Of a stretch of DNA of 64,000 nt, positions 47,781 through 61,249 are shown piece after piece; position 1 is the first letter of the stretch; each line of letters opens with the position of its first letter. The notes under the pieces are model-generated. The model was not told where the DNA came from and ran no database searches. It saw only the letters and a list, made by a program, of their open reading frames with translations. This DNA comes from Sulfurimonas sp. (GTDB lineage: Bacteria > Campylobacterota > Campylobacteria > Campylobacterales > Sulfurimonadaceae), in NCBI GenBank assembly GCA_026988315.1, contig JALSLJ010000010.1:1-64000 (forward strand), read 5' to 3'. The position numbers and the translations under genes are program-made.

Positions 47781-50540
47781 ATGTTAGAGCTATTTAAACA
47801 AGAGAAAAGTTTTTTAACAAGAGCTAAGGAAAAAAGCTCACTAAAGTATGTTATTGAGTTTGATGATGTGGGTGCTTATATCGAGGTTTGTGATTCTAAA
47901 CTTAAGCTTATAAAAGAGATTGATTATAGGGTTTATAATGGAATAGACAGAGAGATTTTACAACTTTTAGAAGATTCTAGTGAGAGGGATTTTTTTACTG
48001 TGAGTTGGGAGAGTGAAGAGAATCATATATATCTCGACAAACATCCACGCCTTGTTGAGCTTTTAAGACAAAATGGTAAGATTTTTAATCTCTCTGGGGA
48101 TGAAATATCTTTTAGTGAGGGTATTTCTAAAGTTGAGTTAGAGATAGTACAAGATTTGGAAAATAAGGGCAAATTTAAAACATCTTTGCAAGTTGATTCC
48201 CATACAGCCTTTAGATTTATAACTGCAAACTATGTGCTACTGCAAGAGAGAATTGTTCAAGTAAACGATATTGGTGAAAATTTCAATAAACTAGTCACTT
48301 TTAACACAAGCATAGAAAAAGAGAAGCTAGAAGAGTACCTAACAATTCTTTTTACATACTTTGAAAATATAGAGATAAAATATGATAATTATGAAGTTGA
48401 TTTTAAAGATGAAAAAAGGCTGATAAAACCAGCGGTGATATTTGAGAAAATAACATCAGATAATGAGTTGGTTTTAAGAACATCTGCAACAGTTGGAAAG
48501 TTAAGTCCTGAGTTTTTTAACGATTTTAATATCTCTAAAATAGTGCTTATAAATGAGTTGGAATCTAGTATTTCTGTATTTGAATGTGATTTTAGCGATG
48601 TTTTTGAGATATATGGAACTATTTTTTCTAAACTTAATTCGCTTAAGAGAACTCTGAAAGGTACAAGCTTTAGTGAGGAGGATGGGCTTTTTATCATAGA
48701 TGAGGAGTTAAGTCGTGAGTATATACTTAAAAATCTTCAAAACATCATAGCAAAAGCTGAGCTCTTTGGTAGTGAAAAATTAAAATCATACAAGTACAAC
48801 ACAAGCTCACCAACTCTCAATGTGGTCTTTAAAGATAAGATAGATTTTCTTGATAGTGGTGATGTAAGTGTAGATATTGGTGAGGATAATTTTAATGTTT
48901 TTGATATGATAAATCTTTACAAAAAACACTCTTACATCCCACTAAGTAACGGTGAAAAAGCGATAGTTGATAAGTCATACATCTCAAAGTTAGAGAGAAT
49001 ATTTAAAAAAGATGGTAAAAAAATCAAAGTATCGTTTTTTGATTTGCCTGAGATAGAGGATTTGATTCATAAAAAAGAGCAAAAAGTTTTTAAAAATTCC
49101 AGAAAATTTTATGAGGGGTTTAACTCTTTAAAAACATCAAAAACTAGGATGCCAAAGCTTAAAGATGTTGTGATGAGGGATTATCAAAAAGAGGGTGTGA
49201 GATGGCTAAAATATCTCTATGATAACAAATTTGGTGGATGTTTAGCTGATGATATGGGGCTTGGTAAAACACTTCAAGCTATCTCTCTTTTGTCATTTAT
49301 CTATCCTAAATCAAAAACTCCATCTTTAGTTGTTATGCCAAAGTCTCTTCTCTCAAACTGGCAAAATGAGCTAGAGAAATTTAATCCAAACCTATCTTTT
49401 TATATCTACTATGGTGCAAATAGAGAGATACAAGAGTTTAAAAAAAACAATGTTATTTTAACAACTTACGCACTTGTAAGAAATGATATAGAAAAATTTA
49501 GAGATATAAAGTTTGATACTATCATCTTAGATGAATCTCAAAATATTAAAAATGTAGATTCAAAAATCTCTAAGGCTGTGATGCTTTTAGAATCTAGCCA
49601 TAAATTTGCATTGAGTGGAACACCTATAGAGAACTCACTTTTTGAACTCTACTCACTTTTTAGGTTTATAAATGGTGGACTCTTCTCAACTCTAGCTGAT
49701 TTTAAAAGAGACTATGCAGTACCGATTCAAGGTGATGCAAATGAGGATGTTGCAAAAATCTTAAAAGCAAAAATATCTCCATTTCTACTAAGACGACTCA
49801 AAAAAGATGTTTTAAAAGATTTACCAGCAAAACAAGAGCAGGTGATTTATGTAGATATGGATGAGAATCATAAAAAGTTCTATAATCAAAAAAGAGATTA
49901 TTACAAACAGGTATTAGAGCAACAAATCTCTATGAATGGGATTGATAAATCAAAGTTTATGATTTTACAAGCTTTTAATGACTTAAGACAAATCGCATCC
50001 GCTCCAGAGCTAAAGAGTGAGGAGCAGATAGTATCTTCAAAGATAGAATCTCTTTTTGAGATGCTTGAAGATATAGTTTTAAACAACCATAAAGTTCTTA
50101 TCTTTGCAAACTTTTTAGGCTCACTAGATTTGATAAGTCAAAAAGCACAGTCTAAAGGGTATGAGCATCTTTTGATGACTGGAAGTACACGAAATCGTCA
50201 AGAGTTAGTAGATAAATTTCAAAATGACAAAAGTATAAAACTCTTTTTAATGACACTTAAAGTTGGTGGAGTTGGACTCAACTTAACAGAGGCTGATTAT
50301 GTCTTTATATTTGACCCATGGTGGAACAAATCTGCTGAAAATCAAGCCATTGATAGATGCCATAGAATGGGGCAGAAAAATAGAGTGTTTTCGTACAAGA
50401 TGATTACTAAAGGGACCATAGAGGAGAAAATCTTAGAGCTTCAAACTCAAAAGCAAGATATGACAGATATGATAATTAGTGGTGAAGATGGTGGGCTAAA
50501 ACAGCTTAGCAGTGCAGATTTAGAGTATATACTGGGGTAG
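47781..50540 (+). CDS. SNF2/Swi2 family DEAD-like helicase/translocase
   Basis: RDYQKEGVRWLKYLYDNKFGGCLADDMGLGKTLQAISLL, ILDESQNIKN, LSGTPIENSLFELYSLFRFI, GGVGLNLTEADYVFIFDPWWNKSAENQAIDRCHRMGQ. Confidence 0.95.
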   Translation: MLELFKQEKSFLTRAKEKSSLKYVIEFDDVGAYIEVCDSKLKLIKEIDYRVYNGIDREILQLLEDSSERDFFTVSWESEENHIYLDKHPRLVELLRQNGKIFNLSGDEISFSEGISKVELEIVQDLENKGKFKTSLQVDSHTAFRFITANYVLLQERIVQVNDIGENFNKLVTFNTSIEKEKLEEYLTILFTYFENIEIKYDNYEVDFKDEKRLIKPAVIFEKITSDNELVLRTSATVGKLSPEFFNDFNISKIVLINELESSISVFECDFSDVFEIYGTIFSKLNSLKRTLKGTSFSEEDGLFIIDEELSREYILKNLQNIIAKAELFGSEKLKSYKYNTSSPTLNVVFKDKIDFLDSGDVSVDIGEDNFNVFDMINLYKKHSYIPLSNGEKAIVDKSYISKLERIFKKDGKKIKVSFFDLPEIEDLIHKKEQKVFKNSRKFYEGFNSLKTSKTRMPKLKDVVMRDYQKEGVRWLKYLYDNKFGGCLADDMGLGKTLQAISLLSFIYPKSKTPSLVVMPKSLLSNWQNELEKFNPNLSFYIYYGANREIQEFKKNNVILTTYALVRNDIEKFRDIKFDTIILDESQNIKNVDSKISKAVMLLESSHKFALSGTPIENSLFELYSLFRFINGGLFSTLADFKRDYAVPIQGDANEDVAKILKAKISPFLLRRLKKDVLKDLPAKQEQVIYVDMDENHKKFYNQKRDYYKQVLEQQISMNGIDKSKFMILQAFNDLRQIASAPELKSEEQIVSSKIESLFEMLEDIVLNNHKVLIFANFLGSLDLISQKAQSKGYEHLLMTGSTRNRQELVDKFQNDKSIKLFLMTLKVGGVGLNLTEADYVFIFDPWWNKSAENQAIDRCHRMGQKNRVFSYKMITKGTIEEKILELQTQKQDMTDMIISGEDGGLKQLSSADLEYILG

Positions 50541-50545
50541 ACGAT

Positions 50546-52315
50546 ATGAGATTTTTAATTTATGATAACAAAAAGTTACAAGAGATTGTTGGGGCTTGTA
50601 CATATCAAGAGCTACTTAGGTTTACAAAATTTATAAACGATGTAGCACCTGGAAGACTAAATATAACCAAGATAAATTCTACTAAAAAAACAGCACTAGT
50701 TAACTATCTTGTAGAGCTTTTAATGCAAGAGAAAAATGTTTTAAATATTGCTCAAAAGCTAATCAGTACAGAGGTTTCTAGCTTTTTATATATGAATATA
50801 GTTTGGAATAATATGGCTATGCAAACAAGCGAAATAGAAGATATGTTTCATCTAAACCTTGCTACCCCATCTGGAAGCAGATATGGAACCAATGAGGAGT
50901 ATTTGGGTGGAGTCTTAGCTTTAATAGTTCGAGTTACTAGAGTAAGTGGAGGGTTTTATTATGGGGATAGTATGGATATTTTGTCTATGAGTAGTAGTTT
51001 TTTTCCTCTTTTAAAAGTTCTTTTACCTATTCCAGATGATTTTGATTTAGAAAAAGTTGAGCATCCAAACAAGACAGACTACAGTTATACAAACGAAGAG
51101 AATGTGTTTAGCTTCATAAGTGTAGCCTCAGATATGCTAAAGAGTAATCTAGTTGAGTTTGGAAAAACCGGTGAAAAACCCCTTGCAAAATCTTTAAATA
51201 TCTTAAAGGCATCCACAGGGATAAATGAGTTTTATAGTGAGAAAAAGATAGATTCACTGGCTACAGATATGTTGACAAGAAGTTTTTCATACTATTACTG
51301 GGCAGCTAAAAAGTTTAAGCCTACAGAACTTGAGTCTTTGAAAGATTTTATAATGGATAAGTTTGAAGATAAGTATTACTTTTTTATAACAAGAGTACTA
51401 CTCACACACCTAAAAAAAGTAAGATTTGATCACCATTATACAAGAGAATTGGGTCTTTTTAATGCACTCAACTCAATTGTGCAAGATTTGCCAAAAGATT
51501 CATGGGTAAGTATGGAAAATATACTAAAATACTCAAGCTATAGAGAGTTAAAATTTCATTTAGAGTATAAGGGTAAAACTGATAACTATATTTTTGAGAG
51601 TGAAGCTGGTGATTACACTTGTGATACTAACTATACGGCACTGTTTTTTGAGCCAGTTTTAAGGGGTGGATTTTTTTATCTGGCATCTTTAGGGCTTTTT
51701 GAACTTATGTATGACAAACCTAAAAGTAACTACAATATAAAAGCAAAAGACAAAGAGTACATCTCTGTTTGGGATGGGCTAAAATATGTAAAAATAACTG
51801 AACTTGGAAAATATATTTTTGGTTTTTCTAAAAAGTACGAGCAAAAAACCATACAAAAGAGTAGACAAAATTTAAAGTTTGATGAGTATAAGCCTATCAT
51901 AACTATAGATTCCAAAGATACTATTTCGCAGGCAAAGCTAGAGCCATTTACTGAAACCTATGCTCCAAACAGATATATACTGAGTTATGCTAAAATATTT
52001 AAAGATTGTAAAAGCACAAAAGCCTTAGAGCTTAAGATAGAGAGCTTTTACAAACAGATAGAGAAAAACCCACCACAAGTTTTTAAAGATTTCTTTGATG
52101 AGATCAAGGCAAATCAAAATCTATTAAAAAGAGATTTAAAGCAAGTTGTGATAGAGTTGACAAATAATAAAAAACTTTTAAATCTTTTTATGAAAAATAA
52201 AAAAATACAAGAGTTGGTGATAAAAGCTCAGGGTTACAGAGTGATAGTTTTAAAAGAAAATATACCAAAACTTACTAAAATCGTTAAAGATAATGGCTTT
52301 TTTGTTGAGTTTTAG
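50546..52315 (+). CDS. hypothetical 589-aa protein partnered with SNF2 and Wadjet-like genes
   Basis: Intact ORF 5 bp after SNF2 stop and 12 bp before the kleisin-like gene; no family recognised. Confidence 0.7.
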   Translation: MRFLIYDNKKLQEIVGACTYQELLRFTKFINDVAPGRLNITKINSTKKTALVNYLVELLMQEKNVLNIAQKLISTEVSSFLYMNIVWNNMAMQTSEIEDMFHLNLATPSGSRYGTNEEYLGGVLALIVRVTRVSGGFYYGDSMDILSMSSSFFPLLKVLLPIPDDFDLEKVEHPNKTDYSYTNEENVFSFISVASDMLKSNLVEFGKTGEKPLAKSLNILKASTGINEFYSEKKIDSLATDMLTRSFSYYYWAAKKFKPTELESLKDFIMDKFEDKYYFFITRVLLTHLKKVRFDHHYTRELGLFNALNSIVQDLPKDSWVSMENILKYSSYRELKFHLEYKGKTDNYIFESEAGDYTCDTNYTALFFEPVLRGGFFYLASLGLFELMYDKPKSNYNIKAKDKEYISVWDGLKYVKITELGKYIFGFSKKYEQKTIQKSRQNLKFDEYKPIITIDSKDTISQAKLEPFTETYAPNRYILSYAKIFKDCKSTKALELKIESFYKQIEKNPPQVFKDFFDEIKANQNLLKRDLKQVVIELTNNKKLLNLFMKNKKIQELVIKAQGYRVIVLKENIPKLTKIVKDNGFFVEF

Positions 52316-52327
52316 ATAAGAGATAAA

Positions 52328-53491
52328 ATGGCAATCAATAAAAATATAATTGACATAATTCAGGTGCAGAACTCTTGTAGGGAGGTGATGCAAGAGTTAT
52401 ATAATTATGAATCTAGATCTAGTGATGCGATTAGGGATAGCTACGCAAATGCTAAACTTGATGATGCCATTGCTTTTGAAATAATTGAGTACGATGATTT
52501 TAATGAAGAGTTTAGTTTATCTCCCGATACAGAGGAGTATTTTAAAACAAGATTAGGTCAAAGTGGTGAGACAAATATAGGTCTAGTGGATGATAAGCTT
52601 TCTAAGTTGCAAGTGCATTTAAACTTTTACAACAAAAGGTTAAAGAGCCGAGAATCGGTCGATAAAGAGTTGAAGTCAATCTATAAAATACTTTCTCAAA
52701 TCCCTTCTCTTTTGAAGTATAATCTGTATGCCATAACCTCAAGTTCTATTTTTGCTTTTAAAAGTGAGCCAAATTTCGATATAAAAATGGATAAGTTAAA
52801 AATATGTCAAGATGAAATATCTCAACTTATAGATGCTTCACAAAGTATAGATAATTTTTTACAAATTCATTACAATTTTTTTAAAGCGATGAAAAATCCT
52901 AAAATAAGTTCTATGATTTTAAAATTAAAAAATAACTCAATTAAGCTTGAAAAATCATTTATCCAACTTTTTGATGATATTAGAAATTTTATAAATCAAA
53001 GTATAAAAGATGGTGAGTTTATAAAAAAACTTCAAACTCTAAAAGAGTTGAAAGATGAACACAAACTTATGCTCAATACAAATATACAAGAGCTTGCTAA
53101 AGATAAATCACCAGTTTTAAAAAGTACTAAAATCAGAAAGATTCATCCTTATGATAAGATTTTAGACTATATTGAGACAATTAGAAAAATAATAGATTCA
53201 AGAGAGATAGAGCTAAATGAGACAATGTCGGAGAGTGCTTTAGAGTATGATATAGATGAGATAGTTCAAATAGAGAGAAAATTATATAATTACCAAAAAC
53301 TAAATGATGATTTCTTATCTCAAGATGAAAATTTAGTGTCATTTTTGTTGAGCAGTGATATTGATAAAGATAGATTATTGGGCGTATTTGTTAGAATGTT
53401 GAAAAATTATTCACTTAAGTATGAGTTAGATGATGAAATATTTATAAAAATAGATGATAGAAAATATATAGAGGTAAAAAGATGCTTATAA
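52328..53491 (+). CDS. JetA/MksF-like kleisin-type subunit
   Basis: Position before MksE-like gene; winged-helix-like FNEEFSLSPDTEEYFKTRLGQSGE followed by long helical region and beta-containing C-terminus. Confidence 0.65.
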   Translation: MAINKNIIDIIQVQNSCREVMQELYNYESRSSDAIRDSYANAKLDDAIAFEIIEYDDFNEEFSLSPDTEEYFKTRLGQSGETNIGLVDDKLSKLQVHLNFYNKRLKSRESVDKELKSIYKILSQIPSLLKYNLYAITSSSIFAFKSEPNFDIKMDKLKICQDEISQLIDASQSIDNFLQIHYNFFKAMKNPKISSMILKLKNNSIKLEKSFIQLFDDIRNFINQSIKDGEFIKKLQTLKELKDEHKLMLNTNIQELAKDKSPVLKSTKIRKIHPYDKILDYIETIRKIIDSREIELNETMSESALEYDIDEIVQIERKLYNYQKLNDDFLSQDENLVSFLLSSDIDKDRLLGVFVRMLKNYSLKYELDDEIFIKIDDRKYIEVKRCL

Positions 53492-54036
53492 ATGTAGATG
53501 AGTTAGTGCCACAACATATAGAGAAGATTTATCAGATTATAATTAAGGGTGGGTACATAAATGAAAACAGCTCAAAAAATGGTAACTCAGAACTTTATGA
53601 TGCCATAGTAAGTAAAGAGAGTGAACTTAGAGCTTACTTTAGACCTTTAGGCTACGCTCTTAAAAGAAGGGAAGGGTATTACTATTTTGCACGAAATGAT
53701 GCTTCTGATGGAGAGGCGGCGCTTGAGCAGATTGTAGATTATATTGAAATTGCTAATTTTTTTAAAACTCTTGATTCTAACTTTAGTGTTGGGTATAGAT
53801 TTAGTCTTACATCGATGGAGCAGCAGCTAAATAGTAACCTTGAGTTGCAAAATTTATCACTAAAGATGAAGGGTATTAAAGCAGATGATAACAGAGAATT
53901 TATTCAAAAAATAGTGGATAGATTAAGAAAAGATGGATTTGTAGAGGAGCAAAATAGTGCTAATGGTGAATTTATAGTTTTAAACTCTTATGAGTATATA
54001 GAGACATTTTTGGGTGAGGTAGAAGTTTATGAGTAG
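53482..54036 (+). CDS. JetB/MksE-like condensin accessory protein
   Basis: SELYDAIVSKESELRAYFRPLGYALKRREGYYYFAR tandem winged-helix signature; overlaps both neighbours. Confidence 0.75.
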   Translation: MLINVDELVPQHIEKIYQIIIKGGYINENSSKNGNSELYDAIVSKESELRAYFRPLGYALKRREGYYYFARNDASDGEAALEQIVDYIEIANFFKTLDSNFSVGYRFSLTSMEQQLNSNLELQNLSLKMKGIKADDNREFIQKIVDRLRKDGFVEEQNSANGEFIVLNSYEYIETFLGEVEVYE

Positions 54037-57000
54037 AGATGGATTGAAAAAACTATATCTTATTAAGAGTGCTGGTTTTGAGTTTTCTGAGATTGACTTA
54101 ACAAAAAATACTCTACTTCTTGGTGAGAGTGGTGTAGGAAAAACTACTATCATGAGAGCTGTGTTGTTTTTTTACACTATGGATTATTCAGATACAGTTT
54201 TAAACTTAACATCTGATACTAAAAAGTCTTTTAATGATTGGTACTTTAAAGAGCATAATTCACATCTAGTGTATGAATATACAAAAGGTGAGAGTAGATT
54301 TTTATTTGTAGTTAGTAAGAGTGCAAAACTACACTATACATTTATAGATATTACAAACTGTAGTTTGGGTGTAAAAGAGCTTTTTATAGATGCAAACATG
54401 CCTCTGAGTTTAGAAAAAATGAATGAAAAAATTCAAAAAGAAAATCTACCAAACCACTCTACGACTATAAAAGAGCGATATATAAATACATTTCATAGGA
54501 GAGATACTAGCAATAAAAAAATAAAACAAGAATCAGTAGTAGATTTTTCACTTTTTGAGAGGATAAACCTTACGAGTGAATTTGCTAAAACTTTATCAAA
54601 TATTTTTATAAGCTCTAAAGTAAATTCAAGCAGTATTAAAAAAAGCATAGTATCTTTGATAGAAAATTCTAATGCTAAAATAGATTTACATGAGATAAAG
54701 GTTAACCTTGATGAGTATGTGTCACATAAAGATGAAATTGAAAAGTTTGAAAAGAAAATACCAACCATAGAGAAATTATCGCAAAAATTTAATGAGTACA
54801 GTGGCAATAAAAAAGAGTTTAAACAAAGGTCAAATGAGTTACATGCTCTAAATAGTAAAACCACTCTAAGGTTGCAAGAGATAGTTACTGAGATAGATTC
54901 TATTGAGGATGAAAAAGAGAAATTAAAAATAAGTTATGGAGTCAAAATTACGACTATTGATGAAAAAATAGAGATAAATACTAAAGAGATTAATATACAA
55001 GAAAATTATTTAAAAGACTTAAAGCTTAAAGATAGAGAGTATAAAGAGATAAATATAGATTTAATGGTAAATGAGTATCAACAAGAACAAAGTTATATAA
55101 ACTCACTTCAAGATTATAGAGATAGATATGAGGCTTTGACATCAGAGTCTAAAAACTTAACACTACAGTACAAGAATATACAAGAGAGACATTACAAAGA
55201 TAGAGATGATGAGATATTAAAACTCAAAAATGAAAATTTAGAGACTAGTAAGAAAATAAACGATGAGAAAAATATTCTCATAGAGGGAAAAGAGAGAAAA
55301 ATAAAAGAAAAAACTCAAAGATATATAGATGAAAAAGATAGTCTTGAGCTTAATCTAAAAGAGCAAGAGGCAAGATTTAACGAAATAGATATTGAGCTTG
55401 CAAGGATAGAGTTTTTTCAATTTAATAAAGATGAGATAGGCAGATATGAGGATGAGATTAAAAAGTATGATGAAGCTTTAGTTGGAGTTAGTATATCTAC
55501 AAACAACAACAATATAGAGATAAAAGAGGTTGAAAAAGAGATAAAAGAGATAGCCAAAGAGCTAATAAACTCTCGTGCTAAATTAGATTCTGAGCTAAAA
55601 GAACAGAAGGAAAAATTATTTGCAAAAAAAGAGATGCTTGAGAAAAAGCTTGACTTTGAAAAAGATAATTTATACGGGTATTTAAATAAAAACAGTGTAA
55701 AAAACAGAGAAAAAATTGTGACCTATCTAAAAGATGAGATTCTTTTCTCAGATAAAACCTTTAATATAAAAGATACTACAGATGTGGATTCACTCTTTGG
55801 TATAAAGATTGAGTTTGATAAAGAGTTTGAAAATGAGTATGAGTACTCAAAGTTAATGAGTTCTCTTAAACTTGTAAAAGAGAGCATAAAGAATCTTAAC
55901 AAAGAAGCTATAAGAAAAAAACAAACCTTAGAAGATGAAGCATCTAAAAACACAAAACTAAAAGATAAGCTAAGAGCAACTCTATACTTACAAAAAACAG
56001 CTTTAGAGGAGAAGAAAAAAAGTTATTTAAAAAATATAAGTTTAGCAAAACTAAACCTTGATAATGAGAAGCAAACCGCATCCAAAGATAAGATAAATAA
56101 AATAACTGAGCTTCAAAAACAGCGTTTATATTGCAAAGGGAAAAAAGAGGAGTTCGGTTCTAAAATTGATAAGCTAAAAATAGAGATAGAATCTGTGAGT
56201 AAAGCTATCAGCGATGATGTTGAGAGTGCAATATTTGATTTTAAAGAGCAACTAAAAGAGCTGAAGATATCTTTAGTGAGCAAGATAGAAGATGTTAAAT
56301 TTGAGTATGCTAAAAAGCAAGAAGCTACACAAGCAGAGCTTTTAGAAGCACTTAAAAGCAGTGGCATTGATGAAACGTTGCTTTTAACTATTTCACAAAA
56401 GATAAAAGTGTTCAGTGCTAAGCTAAAGAGTATAGATAAAAACAAAACAATGGTGATGGTTTATCTATTTGAATATAAAGATAAAATAAAAACAATCCCA
56501 TTTCTAGAGGAAAAATTTCAAAGTGATAGTAGATATTTAAGTGATTTAAAACATAGAAGAGTAGAGATTCAAAAAGATAATGAACTTAAAGTCTTAGAGC
56601 TAGAAAATAAAAAACAAAGTTTTCAAAGTGGTAAATCTGAAATAAACAGCTTTATACAAAATTACAAACAAAAAATACAAAATCATCCAATAGAAAAAAA
56701 GATAAAAGAGAGTTTGACACTAAATGCTTATCTATTAGATGATGATGTGAAAATTACACCCTTGGTGGTTGATGAGATAATTAAAACCTATGACGATATA
56801 AAATCAGCACAAGAGTCTATAGAATCATCTGTTTTAAAAATTATTCAAAATATAAAACATGACAATATTTTTAAGATAGAGATACCAAACGATTTTGTAA
56901 CAAATAGTTCCTATCTTAAAACCGCTAAGGAGTTGATAGAGTACATCTCTAATGACAAATTATCTCTATTTAAAGATGTCTCATTAGAGAAATTTAAAAG

Positions 57001-57721
57001 CAATATAAATTATATTAAAAAACAGCTTGATCTTTTTGAAGATGCTCTTTTAGATATAGAGGGTGAGGTGAAAAATTTAAGAAATGGTATAAAAAAAGCT
57101 ATTGGCTCATTTAAGGTTATTGATGATATTGACATAAGGTTTCAAGATGCAAATAGCAATATATTTAATACCCTAAAATCACTTGCTCTCTTTTATGATA
57201 ATAATAATGATAAATTTTTAAGTGGACTATTTGATTCACTTAGTGATGATAAAATATCTCAAAGAGCAAGAGAAGAGCTAAGGGAAAAAATCGTTGATTT
57301 AGTGAAATTACTCAATGTTTCAAAGGAGTATTTAGAGCTTGAAAATGGCTTTGTTTTGGAGTTTAAAGCTATAGAGAGAGGGAATGATTTGAAGTGGAGA
57401 CAAACATTAAACGACATTGGTTCAACAGGAACATCTACTTTAGTTAAAAGTATCATTAATATATCTATGCTTAAGATGGTTAGTAAAAATATTGTAAAAA
57501 ACAGTGAAATTGTTACCCATTGTATTTTAGATGAGATAGGTACTATATCAACCCAATATTTTAAAGAGTTGAAAGATTTTGTAAATGATAATGGATTTGT
57601 TTTCTTAAATGGTATGCCAACTGAAGATGATATGCTAATGTCAATGTACCCAAGCATTTATGTTGGGCAAAACTTTGGAAAGTACTCAAAAATGATACTT
57701 GCAAGTAAAATGGAAATATAA
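54029..57721 (+). CDS. JetC/MksB-like SMC-type ATPase
   Basis: Walker A LLGESGVGKTTIMRAVLFFY (54122-54145), very long coiled coils, C-terminal GSTGTSTLVKSIINISML and Walker B ILDEIGTIS. Confidence 0.85.
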   Translation: MSRDGLKKLYLIKSAGFEFSEIDLTKNTLLLGESGVGKTTIMRAVLFFYTMDYSDTVLNLTSDTKKSFNDWYFKEHNSHLVYEYTKGESRFLFVVSKSAKLHYTFIDITNCSLGVKELFIDANMPLSLEKMNEKIQKENLPNHSTTIKERYINTFHRRDTSNKKIKQESVVDFSLFERINLTSEFAKTLSNIFISSKVNSSSIKKSIVSLIENSNAKIDLHEIKVNLDEYVSHKDEIEKFEKKIPTIEKLSQKFNEYSGNKKEFKQRSNELHALNSKTTLRLQEIVTEIDSIEDEKEKLKISYGVKITTIDEKIEINTKEINIQENYLKDLKLKDREYKEINIDLMVNEYQQEQSYINSLQDYRDRYEALTSESKNLTLQYKNIQERHYKDRDDEILKLKNENLETSKKINDEKNILIEGKERKIKEKTQRYIDEKDSLELNLKEQEARFNEIDIELARIEFFQFNKDEIGRYEDEIKKYDEALVGVSISTNNNNIEIKEVEKEIKEIAKELINSRAKLDSELKEQKEKLFAKKEMLEKKLDFEKDNLYGYLNKNSVKNREKIVTYLKDEILFSDKTFNIKDTTDVDSLFGIKIEFDKEFENEYEYSKLMSSLKLVKESIKNLNKEAIRKKQTLEDEASKNTKLKDKLRATLYLQKTALEEKKKSYLKNISLAKLNLDNEKQTASKDKINKITELQKQRLYCKGKKEEFGSKIDKLKIEIESVSKAISDDVESAIFDFKEQLKELKISLVSKIEDVKFEYAKKQEATQAELLEALKSSGIDETLLLTISQKIKVFSAKLKSIDKNKTMVMVYLFEYKDKIKTIPFLEEKFQSDSRYLSDLKHRRVEIQKDNELKVLELENKKQSFQSGKSEINSFIQNYKQKIQNHPIEKKIKESLTLNAYLLDDDVKITPLVVDEIIKTYDDIKSAQESIESSVLKIIQNIKHDNIFKIEIPNDFVTNSSYLKTAKELIEYISNDKLSLFKDVSLEKFKSNINYIKKQLDLFEDALLDIEGEVKNLRNGIKKAIGSFKVIDDIDIRFQDANSNIFNTLKSLALFYDNNNDKFLSGLFDSLSDDKISQRAREELREKIVDLVKLLNVSKEYLELENGFVLEFKAIERGNDLKWRQTLNDIGSTGTSTLVKSIINISMLKMVSKNIVKNSEIVTHCILDEIGTISTQYFKELKDFVNDNGFVFLNGMPTEDDMLMSMYPSIYVGQNFGKYSKMILASKMEI

Positions 57722-57724
57722 TAT

Positions 57725-58585
57725 ATGAAGATAAATAAGAAAGATTTTTTGAATATAAAAACCTTGTTGGAGGTTGGAACTATTACAGAGGGTAAATTCT
57801 CAAATAAAGAGATAGTTGAGAAGCTAAAATTAAATAACTCTATCAAAAGTGGCAAAAAAACTCCAAAAGTTAGATATATTGAGTTGGTAAACAGAGAAAA
57901 TATTTTTATATTTTTAAAAAATTATAATTATAATATAAGCTCCGCGGAGGATATTGATACATATATCAAAGAGATACTTGATAGTAATGCCTCAAGAGAT
58001 ATCATACAAAAACGACACAACAGCTCTAAGGCAAAAGATTCTAAAAGCTTAAAAGGCTTGTATATCTCATCACTACAAGAGATAGATATAAAATTTAATG
58101 GTGAAACTGTAACTATAGCACCTAATGATGGGCTAGGCTATTTTTTATTTCACACACAAAAAGTTGAAGTTTTTAAAGATACTATTGTGGTTGGTATTGA
58201 GAATTATCAGGTGGTTTGGTTTGCTAAGAAGTATAAACAATTTTTTGAGAGCGTTAATGTTTTATTTGTAATGATAAATCCCTATATGTTAGAGTGGATA
58301 AGTGACTTAGAAAATGAGTATATCCATTTTGGTGATTATGATTTAGCAGGTATAAATATCTATCTAAATAAAATTATCCCTAGACTAAATAAATCTAAAA
58401 AATACTCAATGTTTATACCTAAAAATATTGAGCAGTTAATAAAAAATCATGGTGATATAGAGCTGTATGAAAAACAGACAAGATATAAAGATTTGCTTGT
58501 GAACGATAGAAAAATTAATGATTTAAAAAAAATTATTATAAAATACAAAAAAGCGATTGAGCAAGAGGGGTTATACTTACTATGA
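57725..58585 (+). CDS. JetD/MksG-like Toprim (Topo VI A-like) nuclease subunit, compact
   Basis: Toprim Glu in VVGIENYQVVWF (E159), DxD in HFGDYDLAGINIY (D204/D206), C-terminal IEQEGLYLL; follows the SMC gene by 3 bp. Confidence 0.75.
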   Translation: MKINKKDFLNIKTLLEVGTITEGKFSNKEIVEKLKLNNSIKSGKKTPKVRYIELVNRENIFIFLKNYNYNISSAEDIDTYIKEILDSNASRDIIQKRHNSSKAKDSKSLKGLYISSLQEIDIKFNGETVTIAPNDGLGYFLFHTQKVEVFKDTIVVGIENYQVVWFAKKYKQFFESVNVLFVMINPYMLEWISDLENEYIHFGDYDLAGINIYLNKIIPRLNKSKKYSMFIPKNIEQLIKNHGDIELYEKQTRYKDLLVNDRKINDLKKIIIKYKKAIEQEGLYLL

Positions 58586-58604
58586 AAATAAGAGGATTAA
58601 AAAG

Positions 58605-59996
58605 ATGAACAAAAAAGATATAGAGAAATTTGATAAATTGCTACAAGGTAAAAGTGCTGCTGGGTTTAATACCTTTGATGAGATAGGTGACATCATAGTT
58701 GATTTGATTAAGATAGAAGTAGATACAAATCAAAATAGATTGCTAGAGAAAATCACTCAAAATATTGAGTTTAACTCGGTTGATGAAGTAAACGATTTTT
58801 TAGGTAAATATTTTAATTTTCACAATAGTTTGATAATGGAGTTTGACAGACTCCATACAATAGAAAATGATGATTTGTTTGATAAAGAGATAGAAAAATT
58901 TGTAAAAAATATTTTGCATATTCTAAACAAAGAAGAGTTACAAGAGGTGCTTTTAGGTTTTATATTTAAACTTGTTACGACTGTTATGGATGAATATTCC
59001 ATAGAACTTTTGGATTATGAAGATGGTGAAGAGCATCTAAAGCATTTAACTAAGGTATTTGGTGATGAAGATATAGCTTTTTTATATATAGGTGTAAATG
59101 TGGTTGCGACATATTTAAGTAAGCAAAAAAATATCAAATATGATGAGCTGATTGATATGAGTAAATCTGTTTTTATTTTTTGTTTGGCGATGAATAGTCT
59201 AAGAAAAGAGAATTTTTCAAATATTCAAAATCAACAAAATAGTTTCGATAATTCTGCAAACTCTGTAGCTTATAATGTAGGTAGAAATGACCCGTGCCCA
59301 TGTGGAAGTGGTAGAAAATATAAAAAGTGCTGTTTAAATAAAAATAGACCTACAGTTTCACAAAAAATAGATTTTGAAGAACCTCAAGATATATTGCCAG
59401 CACTTAGCAAAAAAGAGCTCCATGAGCTTTATACTATATGGTCAAGGTTTTTAAACTTTGTAAGTAAAGCGTTCGCAGGAGCGGCACAAGAGAAATATAT
59501 GAAAATATACGATAAAAACTCTGAGGGTGAATACTTTTTAACCGATGATGCTATAGGTGAAAAAAGACACTACTTAACCATAAGAAATTTTTTAAATGAG
59601 TACTTTTTTATGCTTCTCGATCACTTTATAGATGACAACAGAGTGAGTCAAAAAAATATAGATATTTTATATGATATAAGAGATACATATAAGTGTGGAA
59701 AGTTTATCTCTTATGAGATGTTTAATAATGGTAATGCCATTATCTATAATCTTGAGGATTCTGAGTGTTTTTATGCATATAAATCATTTTATGATTACTC
59801 AAAAGTTTTTCCAAAAAACGAGATGATTGAGACTATGTTTTTTAGCTACAAAGGGAGAATTATAAGTGATGGAGTAGCTACTAAAGATAATGTAGAGGTT
59901 GGAGATAATATGAAAAATATGATGATGGAGGATTATAAAAACAAAAGAAAAAATCTTCAATTTCAGCTAGAGTTAAATGAGGCACTAAAAAAATGA
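58605..59996 (+). CDS. SEC-C motif-containing protein
   Basis: NDPCPCGSGRKYKKCCLNK (59295-59333); ATG at 58605 preferred over TTG at 58557. Confidence 0.88.
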   Translation: MNKKDIEKFDKLLQGKSAAGFNTFDEIGDIIVDLIKIEVDTNQNRLLEKITQNIEFNSVDEVNDFLGKYFNFHNSLIMEFDRLHTIENDDLFDKEIEKFVKNILHILNKEELQEVLLGFIFKLVTTVMDEYSIELLDYEDGEEHLKHLTKVFGDEDIAFLYIGVNVVATYLSKQKNIKYDELIDMSKSVFIFCLAMNSLRKENFSNIQNQQNSFDNSANSVAYNVGRNDPCPCGSGRKYKKCCLNKNRPTVSQKIDFEEPQDILPALSKKELHELYTIWSRFLNFVSKAFAGAAQEKYMKIYDKNSEGEYFLTDDAIGEKRHYLTIRNFLNEYFFMLLDHFIDDNRVSQKNIDILYDIRDTYKCGKFISYEMFNNGNAIIYNLEDSECFYAYKSFYDYSKVFPKNEMIETMFFSYKGRIISDGVATKDNVEVGDNMKNMMMEDYKNKRKNLQFQLELNEALKK

Positions 59997-61249
59997 ATAA
60001 ACAAGATTTTAACGAGGGCTTACTAGGCTTTTTAGACGCATCACCTACACCTTTTCACGCGACACGAAATATGAGTATGATGTTTGAAAATGCTGGATTT
60101 ATTAAACTTTTAGAAGAGCAGAAGTGGGAGTTAGAGGAGGGTAAGAAGTACTTCGTTACTCGGAATGATTCTTCTATCATCGCTTTTACATACCCTAAGG
60201 CTAAAAACTATACTATGGTTGGAGCACATACAGATTCGCCGAATTTGAAACTAAAACCAAATCCTATGATTAAAGAGCATGGAGTTGTGAAGTTTGGAGT
60301 TGAATCTTATGGTGGCTTACTTTTAAACCCTTGGTTTGATAGAGATTTGTCTTTGGCTGGACGGGTGTCTTATCTTGACTCTAGTGACAAGATAAAAGAT
60401 GTTTTGATAGATGTTAAAAAGGCTATTGCTATCATCCCATCACTCGCAATTCATTTAGACGATAAGGCAAACAAAGAGAGAACTGTCAATAAGCAGACAG
60501 ATATGTGCCCTGTTTTGACAACAAATGATGATTTTGAGTTTGATGAGTTTTTGAAGTGGCAACTCTCCAAAGTGGATGTTTTAGATGTCAAAGAGCTTTA
60601 TGCTAGTGAACTAAGTTTTTACGATACTCAAAAAGCTTCTTATGTAGGTTTACATGATGATTTTATAGCGAGTGCTAGAGTTGATAATTTGCTATCTTGT
60701 TATGTTGGGATGCTGAGTATTTGTAGTGTGGATGTGGAGAAACCTATGCTTTTTATTGCCAGTGACCATGAAGAGGTTGGGAGTGAGTCAACGAGTGGAG
60801 CAGGGGGAAGTTTTTTAGAAAACACTTTGAAACGGATGTTTAACAATTATGATGAATATATGCAGATGATACGAACCTCTATCATGATCAGTGCAGATAA
60901 TGCCCACGCAATTCATCCAAACTACCCAACAAAACATGACTCAAACCACGCACCCCACATAAACAAAGGGTGTGTAATAAAGGTCAATGCAAATCAAAGA
61001 TACGCATCCAACTCAAAAACTATTTCAAGATTTATGAAAGTTGCCTCATCTTTAAATGAACCGCTTCAACACTTTGTAACGAGAAGCGATATGGGATGCG
61101 GCTCAACTATTGGACCTATCACTGCATCAAGACTTGGAATAGAAACACTCGATGTTGGACTACCAACATTTGCTATGCACTCCATACGGGAGCTTTGTGG
61201 GAGTGATGATGCACTCTCCCTTTATAAAATCATAGTAGGATTTGAGTAG
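59993..61249 (+). CDS. M18 family aminopeptidase
   Basis: FLDASPTPFHATRNM, VGAHTDSPNLKLKPNP, GLHDDFIASARVDNLLSC, IASDHEEVGSESTSGAGG, MGCGSTIGPITASRLG. Confidence 0.95.
   Translation: MNKQDFNEGLLGFLDASPTPFHATRNMSMMFENAGFIKLLEEQKWELEEGKKYFVTRNDSSIIAFTYPKAKNYTMVGAHTDSPNLKLKPNPMIKEHGVVKFGVESYGGLLLNPWFDRDLSLAGRVSYLDSSDKIKDVLIDVKKAIAIIPSLAIHLDDKANKERTVNKQTDMCPVLTTNDDFEFDEFLKWQLSKVDVLDVKELYASELSFYDTQKASYVGLHDDFIASARVDNLLSCYVGMLSICSVDVEKPMLFIASDHEEVGSESTSGAGGSFLENTLKRMFNNYDEYMQMIRTSIMISADNAHAIHPNYPTKHDSNHAPHINKGCVIKVNANQRYASNSKTISRFMKVASSLNEPLQHFVTRSDMGCGSTIGPITASRLGIETLDVGLPTFAMHSIRELCGSDDALSLYKIIVGFE

What the first reader, a model, noticed from the sequence alone, without database searches (positions are those of the whole stretch)
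47781..59996. SNF2-associated Wadjet-like (JetABCD/MksFEB-G) operon with a 589-aa orphan and a SEC-C protein
Seen directly: seven co-directional genes with gaps of 20 bp or less, or overlaps. The order is SNF2 translocase, 589-aa unknown, kleisin-like, MksE-like, 1230-aa SMC-like ATPase, Toprim/JetD-like protein, SEC-C protein. Established: JetABCD Wadjet systems (MksBEFG, EptABCD) recognise and cleave closed circular plasmid DNA using an SMC motor plus a Toprim nuclease. Inference: this is a divergent Wadjet-class module that has gained a second, SNF2-type DNA motor. I do not associate a SNF2 gene or the 589-aa protein with Wadjet types I-III, so it may be an undescribed subtype. I cannot exclude that it has been catalogued.
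Basis: partly seen in the sequence, partly recalled or inferred. Interest (0 to 1): 0.92.

Follow-up and report, generated by a model that had tools for sequence, protein, structure and literature searches.

The report
Two neighbouring modules: Wadjet-like operon plus SNF2 pair
The seven genes are real, but they are two independently inherited DNA-handling gene sets that sit next to each other in a variable spot of this genome: a distant relative of the plasmid-destroying Wadjet system, and an unnamed helicase pair; the 'SNF2-powered Wadjet' does not recur in any other genome examined.

Summary
Seven co-directional ORFs are confirmed at 47781-59996. They are not one conserved system. (1) F387-E184-B1230-D286 (52328-58585) is a self-contained four-gene operon in canonical mksFEBG (JetABCD) order. 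It recurs without SNF2 or U589 in Campylobacterota and Bacteroidota. E passes Pfam's MksE cut-off, B passes DUF3584 and D passes DUF7281. D folds like topoisomerase VI-A/Spo11, keeps the Toprim E and DxD and a C-terminal ExE, and has no conserved CAP tyrosine. This is a divergent Wadjet/MksBEFG-class operon. PADLOC's type I-III models see it only weakly. The kleisin call for F is by position only. (2) SNF2+U589 (47781-52315) is a separate two- or three-gene module. It occurs without the SMC genes in 13 of 16 U589-bearing congeners and in Bacteroidota and Fusobacteriota. No searched library names U589. (3) The SEC-C gene is an extra gene specific to this locus. Both modules insert independently at the same hotspot upstream of an M18 aminopeptidase. 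In G036 the dnaE-FEBD-aminopeptidase order has neither SNF2, U589 nor SEC-C. In the genus (136 genomes) the two modules co-occur in 3 genomes (p=0.07) and are adjacent only here. The 'SNF2-associated Wadjet subtype' is not supported.

The parts
47781..50540 (+). SNF2-family helicase (919 aa), first gene of the SNF2+U589 module
   Evidence: Pfam SNF2-rel_dom 9e-70 and Helicase_C 8e-21. Paired with U589 homologues elsewhere without SMC genes.
50546..52315 (+). U589: 589-aa partner of the SNF2 helicase, no family name
   Evidence: No match in Pfam, PADLOC, NCBIfam or PHROGs. Homologues 42-54% identical directly downstream of SNF2 in congeners, more distant in Chondrinema and Fusobacterium. Some loci carry a second paralogue between them.
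52328..53491 (+). F387: putative kleisin (MksF/JetA position)
   Evidence: First gene of the recurrent F-E-B-D operon. Helical low-confidence model, pLDDT 51. No Pfam, PADLOC or PDB-sequence match.
53482..54036 (+). E184: MksE-family KITE subunit (JetB position)
   Evidence: Pfam MksE PF21980, 94.3 bits vs cut-off 27; Bacteroidota orthologue 141 bits.
54029..57721 (+). B1230: MukB/MksB/JetC-like SMC ATPase
   Evidence: Pfam DUF3584 full length, 103.4 bits vs cut-off 31. Walker A, signature (IGSxGT) and Walker B (DEIG) regions conserved in alignment A1.
57725..58585 (+). D286: Toprim nuclease (MksG/JetD position)
   Evidence: DUF7281 30.1 bits vs cut-off 27. PADLOC JetD1 weak, C-terminal. AlphaFold pLDDT 79.7, Foldseek best hits topoisomerase VI-A and Spo11. 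E159, D204, D206 and E281 invariant; EQE at 279-281.
58605..59996 (+). SEC-C motif protein (about 463 aa); extra gene between D and the aminopeptidase
   Evidence: Pfam SEC-C 6.6e-10. Absent between D and the aminopeptidase in G036, G452 and G505. Long homologues only in G294 and G439, without the SMC genes nearby.
59993..61249 (+). M18-family aminopeptidase: conserved right border of the variable site (family name is my reading of the sequence)
   Evidence: Found in 56 of 61 congeners, with the HK gene downstream in nearly all loci read; usual upstream neighbour is dnaE-like.

Best explanation
Two independent horizontally variable modules have landed next to each other in a hotspot upstream of the M18 aminopeptidase gene. 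Module 1 (F-E-B-D, 52328-58585) is a divergent Wadjet/MksBEFG-class complex. Inferred mechanism: the SMC dimer (B) with KITE (E) and kleisin (F) loads on DNA and extrudes loops using ATP; on small closed circles extrusion completes, the motors collide, and the autoinhibited Toprim nuclease (D) is released to cut the plasmid. Module 2 (SNF2+U589, sometimes plus a U589 paralogue) is a separate helicase-based DNA-handling module, probably also defence-type, in which U589 would be the DNA- or target-binding partner of the motor. Shown: gene content, separability, hotspot, Toprim fold and motifs. Inferred: plasmid cleavage, complex formation, and everything about module 2's function.
For: F-E-B-D recurs without SNF2/U589 in L022-L027, Bacteroidota L035, L036, L038, L039, congeners L114-L117 and Persicobacter plasmid L163. 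No fifth gene is shared across these loci. SNF2+U589 recurs without F-E-B-D in L028, L029, L030, L006, L149-L155 and L160, L161; no F387 is near any other U589 copy. Same site, different load: dnaE-like gene directly upstream of the aminopeptidase (L043, L046, L048), dnaE then FEBD then aminopeptidase (G036: L147, L113), B-D-aminopeptidase (L111, L112), U589-aminopeptidase (L148), SNF2-paralogue-U589-AAA-aminopeptidase (L152). G452 carries both modules at different sites; its U589 is followed by a different gene. D has a topoisomerase VI-A/Spo11 fold, Foldseek E 8e-6, with E159, D204, D206, E281 invariant. MksG needs E236/D279, and two conserved JetD glutamates correspond to MksG E349/E351 (PMC10123090). 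Canonical order is mksFEBG (PMC10123090).
Against: The SNF2 to SEC-C spacings (19 bp or less) suggest co-transcription, so cooperation in this one genome is not excluded. Co-occurrence in the genus (3 observed, about 1 expected, p=0.07) is slightly above chance. Kleisin identity of F is not shown by sequence or a confident model. PADLOC Wadjet models match only weakly, and the Foldseek top 50 list topoisomerase VI-A and Spo11, not JetD/MksG. Several congener contigs break inside B, so what precedes F there could not always be read.
Confidence: 0.8

Rival explanations
1. One integrated seven-gene 'SNF2-Wadjet' in which SNF2 and U589 load, remodel or license the SMC-Toprim complex.
For: Tight co-directional spacing in the window; slight co-occurrence excess in the genus (3 vs about 1 expected).
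Against: The seven-gene order is found in no other genome examined. Both halves occur alone, even at the same site in congeners.
Confidence: 0.07
2. F-E-B-D is a chromosome-organising MksBEF-type condensin with an accessory Toprim protein, not a defence system.
For: E is called MksE by Pfam. F-E-B without D occurs in Parabacteroides L164. P. [quoted passage not shown]
Against: Sporadic: 9 of 136 congeners with a strong D match; present on a plasmid; found at different sites in different genomes; D retained with intact Toprim and C-terminal glutamate motifs.
Confidence: 0.12
3. The SEC-C protein is a functional fifth subunit or regulator of the F-E-B-D operon.
For: Starts about 19 bp after D and overlaps the aminopeptidase start.
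Against: Absent from all other F-E-B-D loci; D abuts the aminopeptidase directly in three congeners; its long homologue in G294 sits in an unrelated neighbourhood.
Confidence: 0.06

Closest known systems
MksBEFG / JetABCD (Wadjet, EptABCD)
   Same: Same four-gene order F-E-B-G. MksE-family KITE; MukB-like DUF3584 SMC; Toprim effector with topoisomerase VI-A fold, Mg-site E and DxD, C-terminal ExE, no conserved CAP tyrosine.
   Different: Sequences lie near the edge of PADLOC's Jet models (only weak, partial hits). D is 286 aa, shorter than the PADLOC JetD profiles (about 345-430 positions). F matches no kleisin family.
MukBEF / MksBEF condensins
   Same: SMC-KITE-kleisin parts list, with MksE and DUF3584 family matches.
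   Different: A Toprim nuclease is added; distribution is sporadic and at variable sites.
Bacterial SNF2 helicases in defence (ZorD, DrmD, DpdE)
   Same: SNF2 helicase core.
   Different: Essentially only the helicase core matches. The partner U589 and its paralogue match no PADLOC component of Zorya, DISARM or Dpd; scores are far below the NCBIfam cut-offs for ZorD, DrmD and DpdE.

Membership tests
Wadjet / MksBEFG (JetABCD) | Four adjacent genes kleisin-KITE-SMC-Toprim in F-E-B-G order | tested here: met
   Order F-E-B-D in the window and more than a dozen other loci; canonical order per PMC10123090. The kleisin label itself is positional.
Wadjet / MksBEFG (JetABCD) | MukB/MksB-type SMC with Walker A, signature and Walker B | tested here: met
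   DUF3584 above Pfam cut-off; motifs conserved.
Wadjet / MksBEFG (JetABCD) | KITE subunit of the MksE/JetB family | tested here: met
   PF21980 MksE 94.3 bits vs 27.
Wadjet / MksBEFG (JetABCD) | JetD/MksG: CAP-like domain plus Toprim with E and DxD, C-terminal ExE, no catalytic CAP tyrosine | tested here: met
   Top6A/Spo11 fold; E159, D204, D206, E281 invariant and no invariant N-terminal tyrosine.
Wadjet / MksBEFG (JetABCD) | Kleisin subunit JetA/MksF | tested here: inconclusive
   No Pfam, PADLOC or PDB-sequence match; model too poor, pLDDT 51.
Wadjet / MksBEFG (JetABCD) | Matches catalogued type I, II or III Jet models | tested here: inconclusive
   Only weak partial PADLOC hits, mostly JetB1/JetC1/JetD1; subtype cannot be assigned.
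Wadjet / MksBEFG (JetABCD) | Cleaves small circular DNA / restricts plasmids | not testable with these tools
   Needs an assay.
   Adjacent only in the window; 13 of 16 U589-bearing congeners lack a strong F-E-B-D-type D match and 6 of 9 D-bearing congeners lack U589.
Zorya / DISARM / Dpd (SNF2-containing) | SNF2 protein passes the family cut-off and has its partners | tested here: not met
   ZorD 229 bits vs 1500, DrmD 118 vs 950 and DpdE 42 vs 500 in NCBIfam; no adjacent gene matches a partner of these systems in PADLOC.

The most novel reading that the evidence does not exclude
SNF2+U589 (with an optional U589 paralogue) is an undescribed mobile two- or three-gene defence module spread over Campylobacterota, Bacteroidota and Fusobacteriota, sharing an insertion hotspot with a Wadjet clade that the 2023 PADLOC models largely miss.
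Probability: 0.4. Interest if true: 0.55.

Novelty: new member of a known kind. Interest (0 to 1): 0.33.

Why it matters
It corrects a misleading reading: operon-like spacing in a variable hotspot does not by itself make a single system. The useful remainder is a divergent Wadjet-class clade (MksE + DUF3584 + short DUF7281 Toprim) in Campylobacterota and Bacteroidota that the PADLOC 2023 models see poorly, and an unnamed SNF2+U589 module worth testing for defence activity on its own.

Tried and rejected
JetD_C (PF09983) search of the whole genome: no match. Single-sequence U589 scan of genome contigs: nothing. Scans of viral contigs with U589 and D: nothing. U589 against phage records: nothing. 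PDB sequence searches with D, U589, B and F profiles: nothing meaningful. The idea that U589 is an XPB/Ssl2-type Helicase_C_3 protein (PF13625): no match in the genome. Profile comparison of D and F with the Acinetobacter SMC-Toprim operon L165: not significant. Structure of F: too low in confidence to use. Literature: no paper held combines Wadjet, SNF2 and kleisin terms; the only Wadjet+SNF2+SMC hit is a general review.

Full report
Observation. The seven ORFs are present exactly as described. Spacing is tight: 5, 12, -10, -8, 3 and about 19 bp, and the SEC-C gene overlaps the next gene, an M18 aminopeptidase, by 4 bp. Pfam gives SNF2 (SNF2-rel_dom 9e-70), MksE (94.3 bits, cut-off 27), DUF3584 (103.4 bits, cut-off 31), DUF7281 (30.1 bits, cut-off 27) and SEC-C. 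It gives no family for the 589-aa protein (U589) and no match above cut-off for the 387-aa protein (F387).

The genes are two modules. A class-wide search with D286 found the same four-gene order F-E-B-D, with no SNF2 or U589 beside it, in six further genomes of the window's class. A scan with the B alignment found it in four Bacteroidota contigs; a fifth contig, L037, has E-B only. Within the genus, nine of 136 genomes carry a strong D match, and the complete readable operons L114-L117 stand alone. It is also on a Persicobacter plasmid. Comparing the neighbours of 22 such loci showed no recurrent fifth gene.

Conversely, U589 (or, in G067, only its paralogue) occurs in 16 of 136 congeners. 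Wherever the upstream gene could be read it belongs to an SNF2 locus, sometimes with a U589 paralogue (435-598 aa) between the two, and F387 is never near it except in the window. The SNF2+U589 pair also stands alone on a Chondrinema plasmid (Bacteroidota) and in Fusobacterium vincentii. In a class-wide set of 398 good genomes U589 is in the window's genome and G294 (a third match, G067, is the paralogue), while F-E-B-D-type D is in several others.

Hotspot. Most congeners read have a dnaE-like gene directly upstream of the aminopeptidase (for example L043, L046, L048; naming dnaE and M18 aminopeptidase is my reading of the sequences). In G036 the order is dnaE, an OmpA-like gene, then F-E-B and, on the next contig, B-D-aminopeptidase, with no SNF2, U589 or SEC-C; joining the two contigs is inference. 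G452 and G505 have B-D-aminopeptidase directly. G488 has U589-aminopeptidase, with its F-E-B-D on another contig. G440, G495 and G483 have U589 at the same site with other genes between. G452 carries both modules, but its U589 is followed by an unrelated gene (a methionine-synthase-like start, my reading), not F. So each module is found at this site without the other. Co-occurrence in the genus is 3 genomes against about 1 expected (Fisher p=0.07), and adjacency is seen only in the window. I conclude that the seven-gene unit is a local juxtaposition. It may be co-transcribed here, which is inference from spacing.

What F-E-B-D is. The order matches mksFEBG of C. glutamicum (PMC10123090). D286 models at pLDDT 79.7, and the six PDB matches with E below 0.001 are all topoisomerase VI-A or Spo11 chains. 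Alignments keep E159, D204, D206 and E281 invariant in seven sequences of the class and in the window-plus-Bacteroidota set. A C-terminal ExE (EQE at 279-281) is present in the clade members listed. In MksG, E236 and D279 are needed for cleavage, there is no CAP tyrosine candidate, and E349/E351 correspond to JetD's two conserved glutamates (PMC10123090). D has no invariant tyrosine in its N-terminal domain. PADLOC's JetD1 models match D only in the C-terminal Toprim; a related D in L118 passes Pfam's JetD_C cut-off marginally (22.5 vs 22 bits). F387 remains a kleisin by position and helical content only.

Mechanism. By analogy with reconstituted Wadjet (PMC10586767), B with E and F would extrude loops, and completion on a small circle would release D to cut. 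Only the parts list, motif integrity and D's fold are shown here; the activity is inferred. SNF2+U589 is most likely a separate helicase-based defence-type module, judged from its sporadic distribution, hotspot location and presence on an IS-flanked plasmid segment. Its target and effector step are unknown; one paralogue carries a Rho_N domain at its N terminus, which suggests nucleic-acid binding.

Membership and novelty. F-E-B-D meets the tested architectural features of Wadjet/MksBEFG, except that the kleisin test is inconclusive and the subtype cannot be assigned, because PADLOC type I-III models give only weak partial hits. I file it as a divergent new member of a known kind. The 'SNF2-associated' subtype fails its defining test. 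The literature searches found no description of either module, but the library held is incomplete.

Limits. Many congeners are fragmented assemblies, so absences are lower bounds.

Noticed in passing
L160:3635-8269; L161:3722-8215: Stand-alone SNF2+U589 pairs in Bacteroidota (plasmid, IS-flanked) and Fusobacteriota; U589 has no family match in any library searched.
   Followed up: partly
L028:12312-13619; L029:2289-4085; L152:6465-8195; L149:1142-2449; L157:7282-8592: A U589 paralogue (435-598 aa) sits between SNF2 and U589 in several congeners, and alone with SNF2 in L157; one copy has a Rho_N domain.
   Followed up: partly
L118:1-5154; L121:51-6008; L031:1-4982: A second SMC-Toprim clade in the same class with a different order (D, then a ~360-aa gene, then E, then B); its D matches DUF7281 and, marginally, JetD_C.
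   Followed up: partly
L165:5899-12405: Acinetobacter plasmid operon SMC(DUF3584)-217 aa-416 aa-Toprim(DUF7281/DUF2399), annotated only as ATP-binding/hypothetical/DUF2399 proteins.
   Followed up: no
L033:4399-10254: McrC gene next to an SMC-like ATPase, a JetD_C-like Toprim protein and a 390-aa unknown: possible McrBC-linked Toprim system.
   Followed up: no
G454:C4:830-2599 and G454:C31:11845-13614: Two near-equal U589 copies on different contigs of one genome; duplication or assembly effect not resolved.
   Followed up: no
L164:4191-9630: F-E-B without D on a Parabacteroides record annotated as a plasmid: an MksBEF-like remnant or condensin.
   Followed up: no
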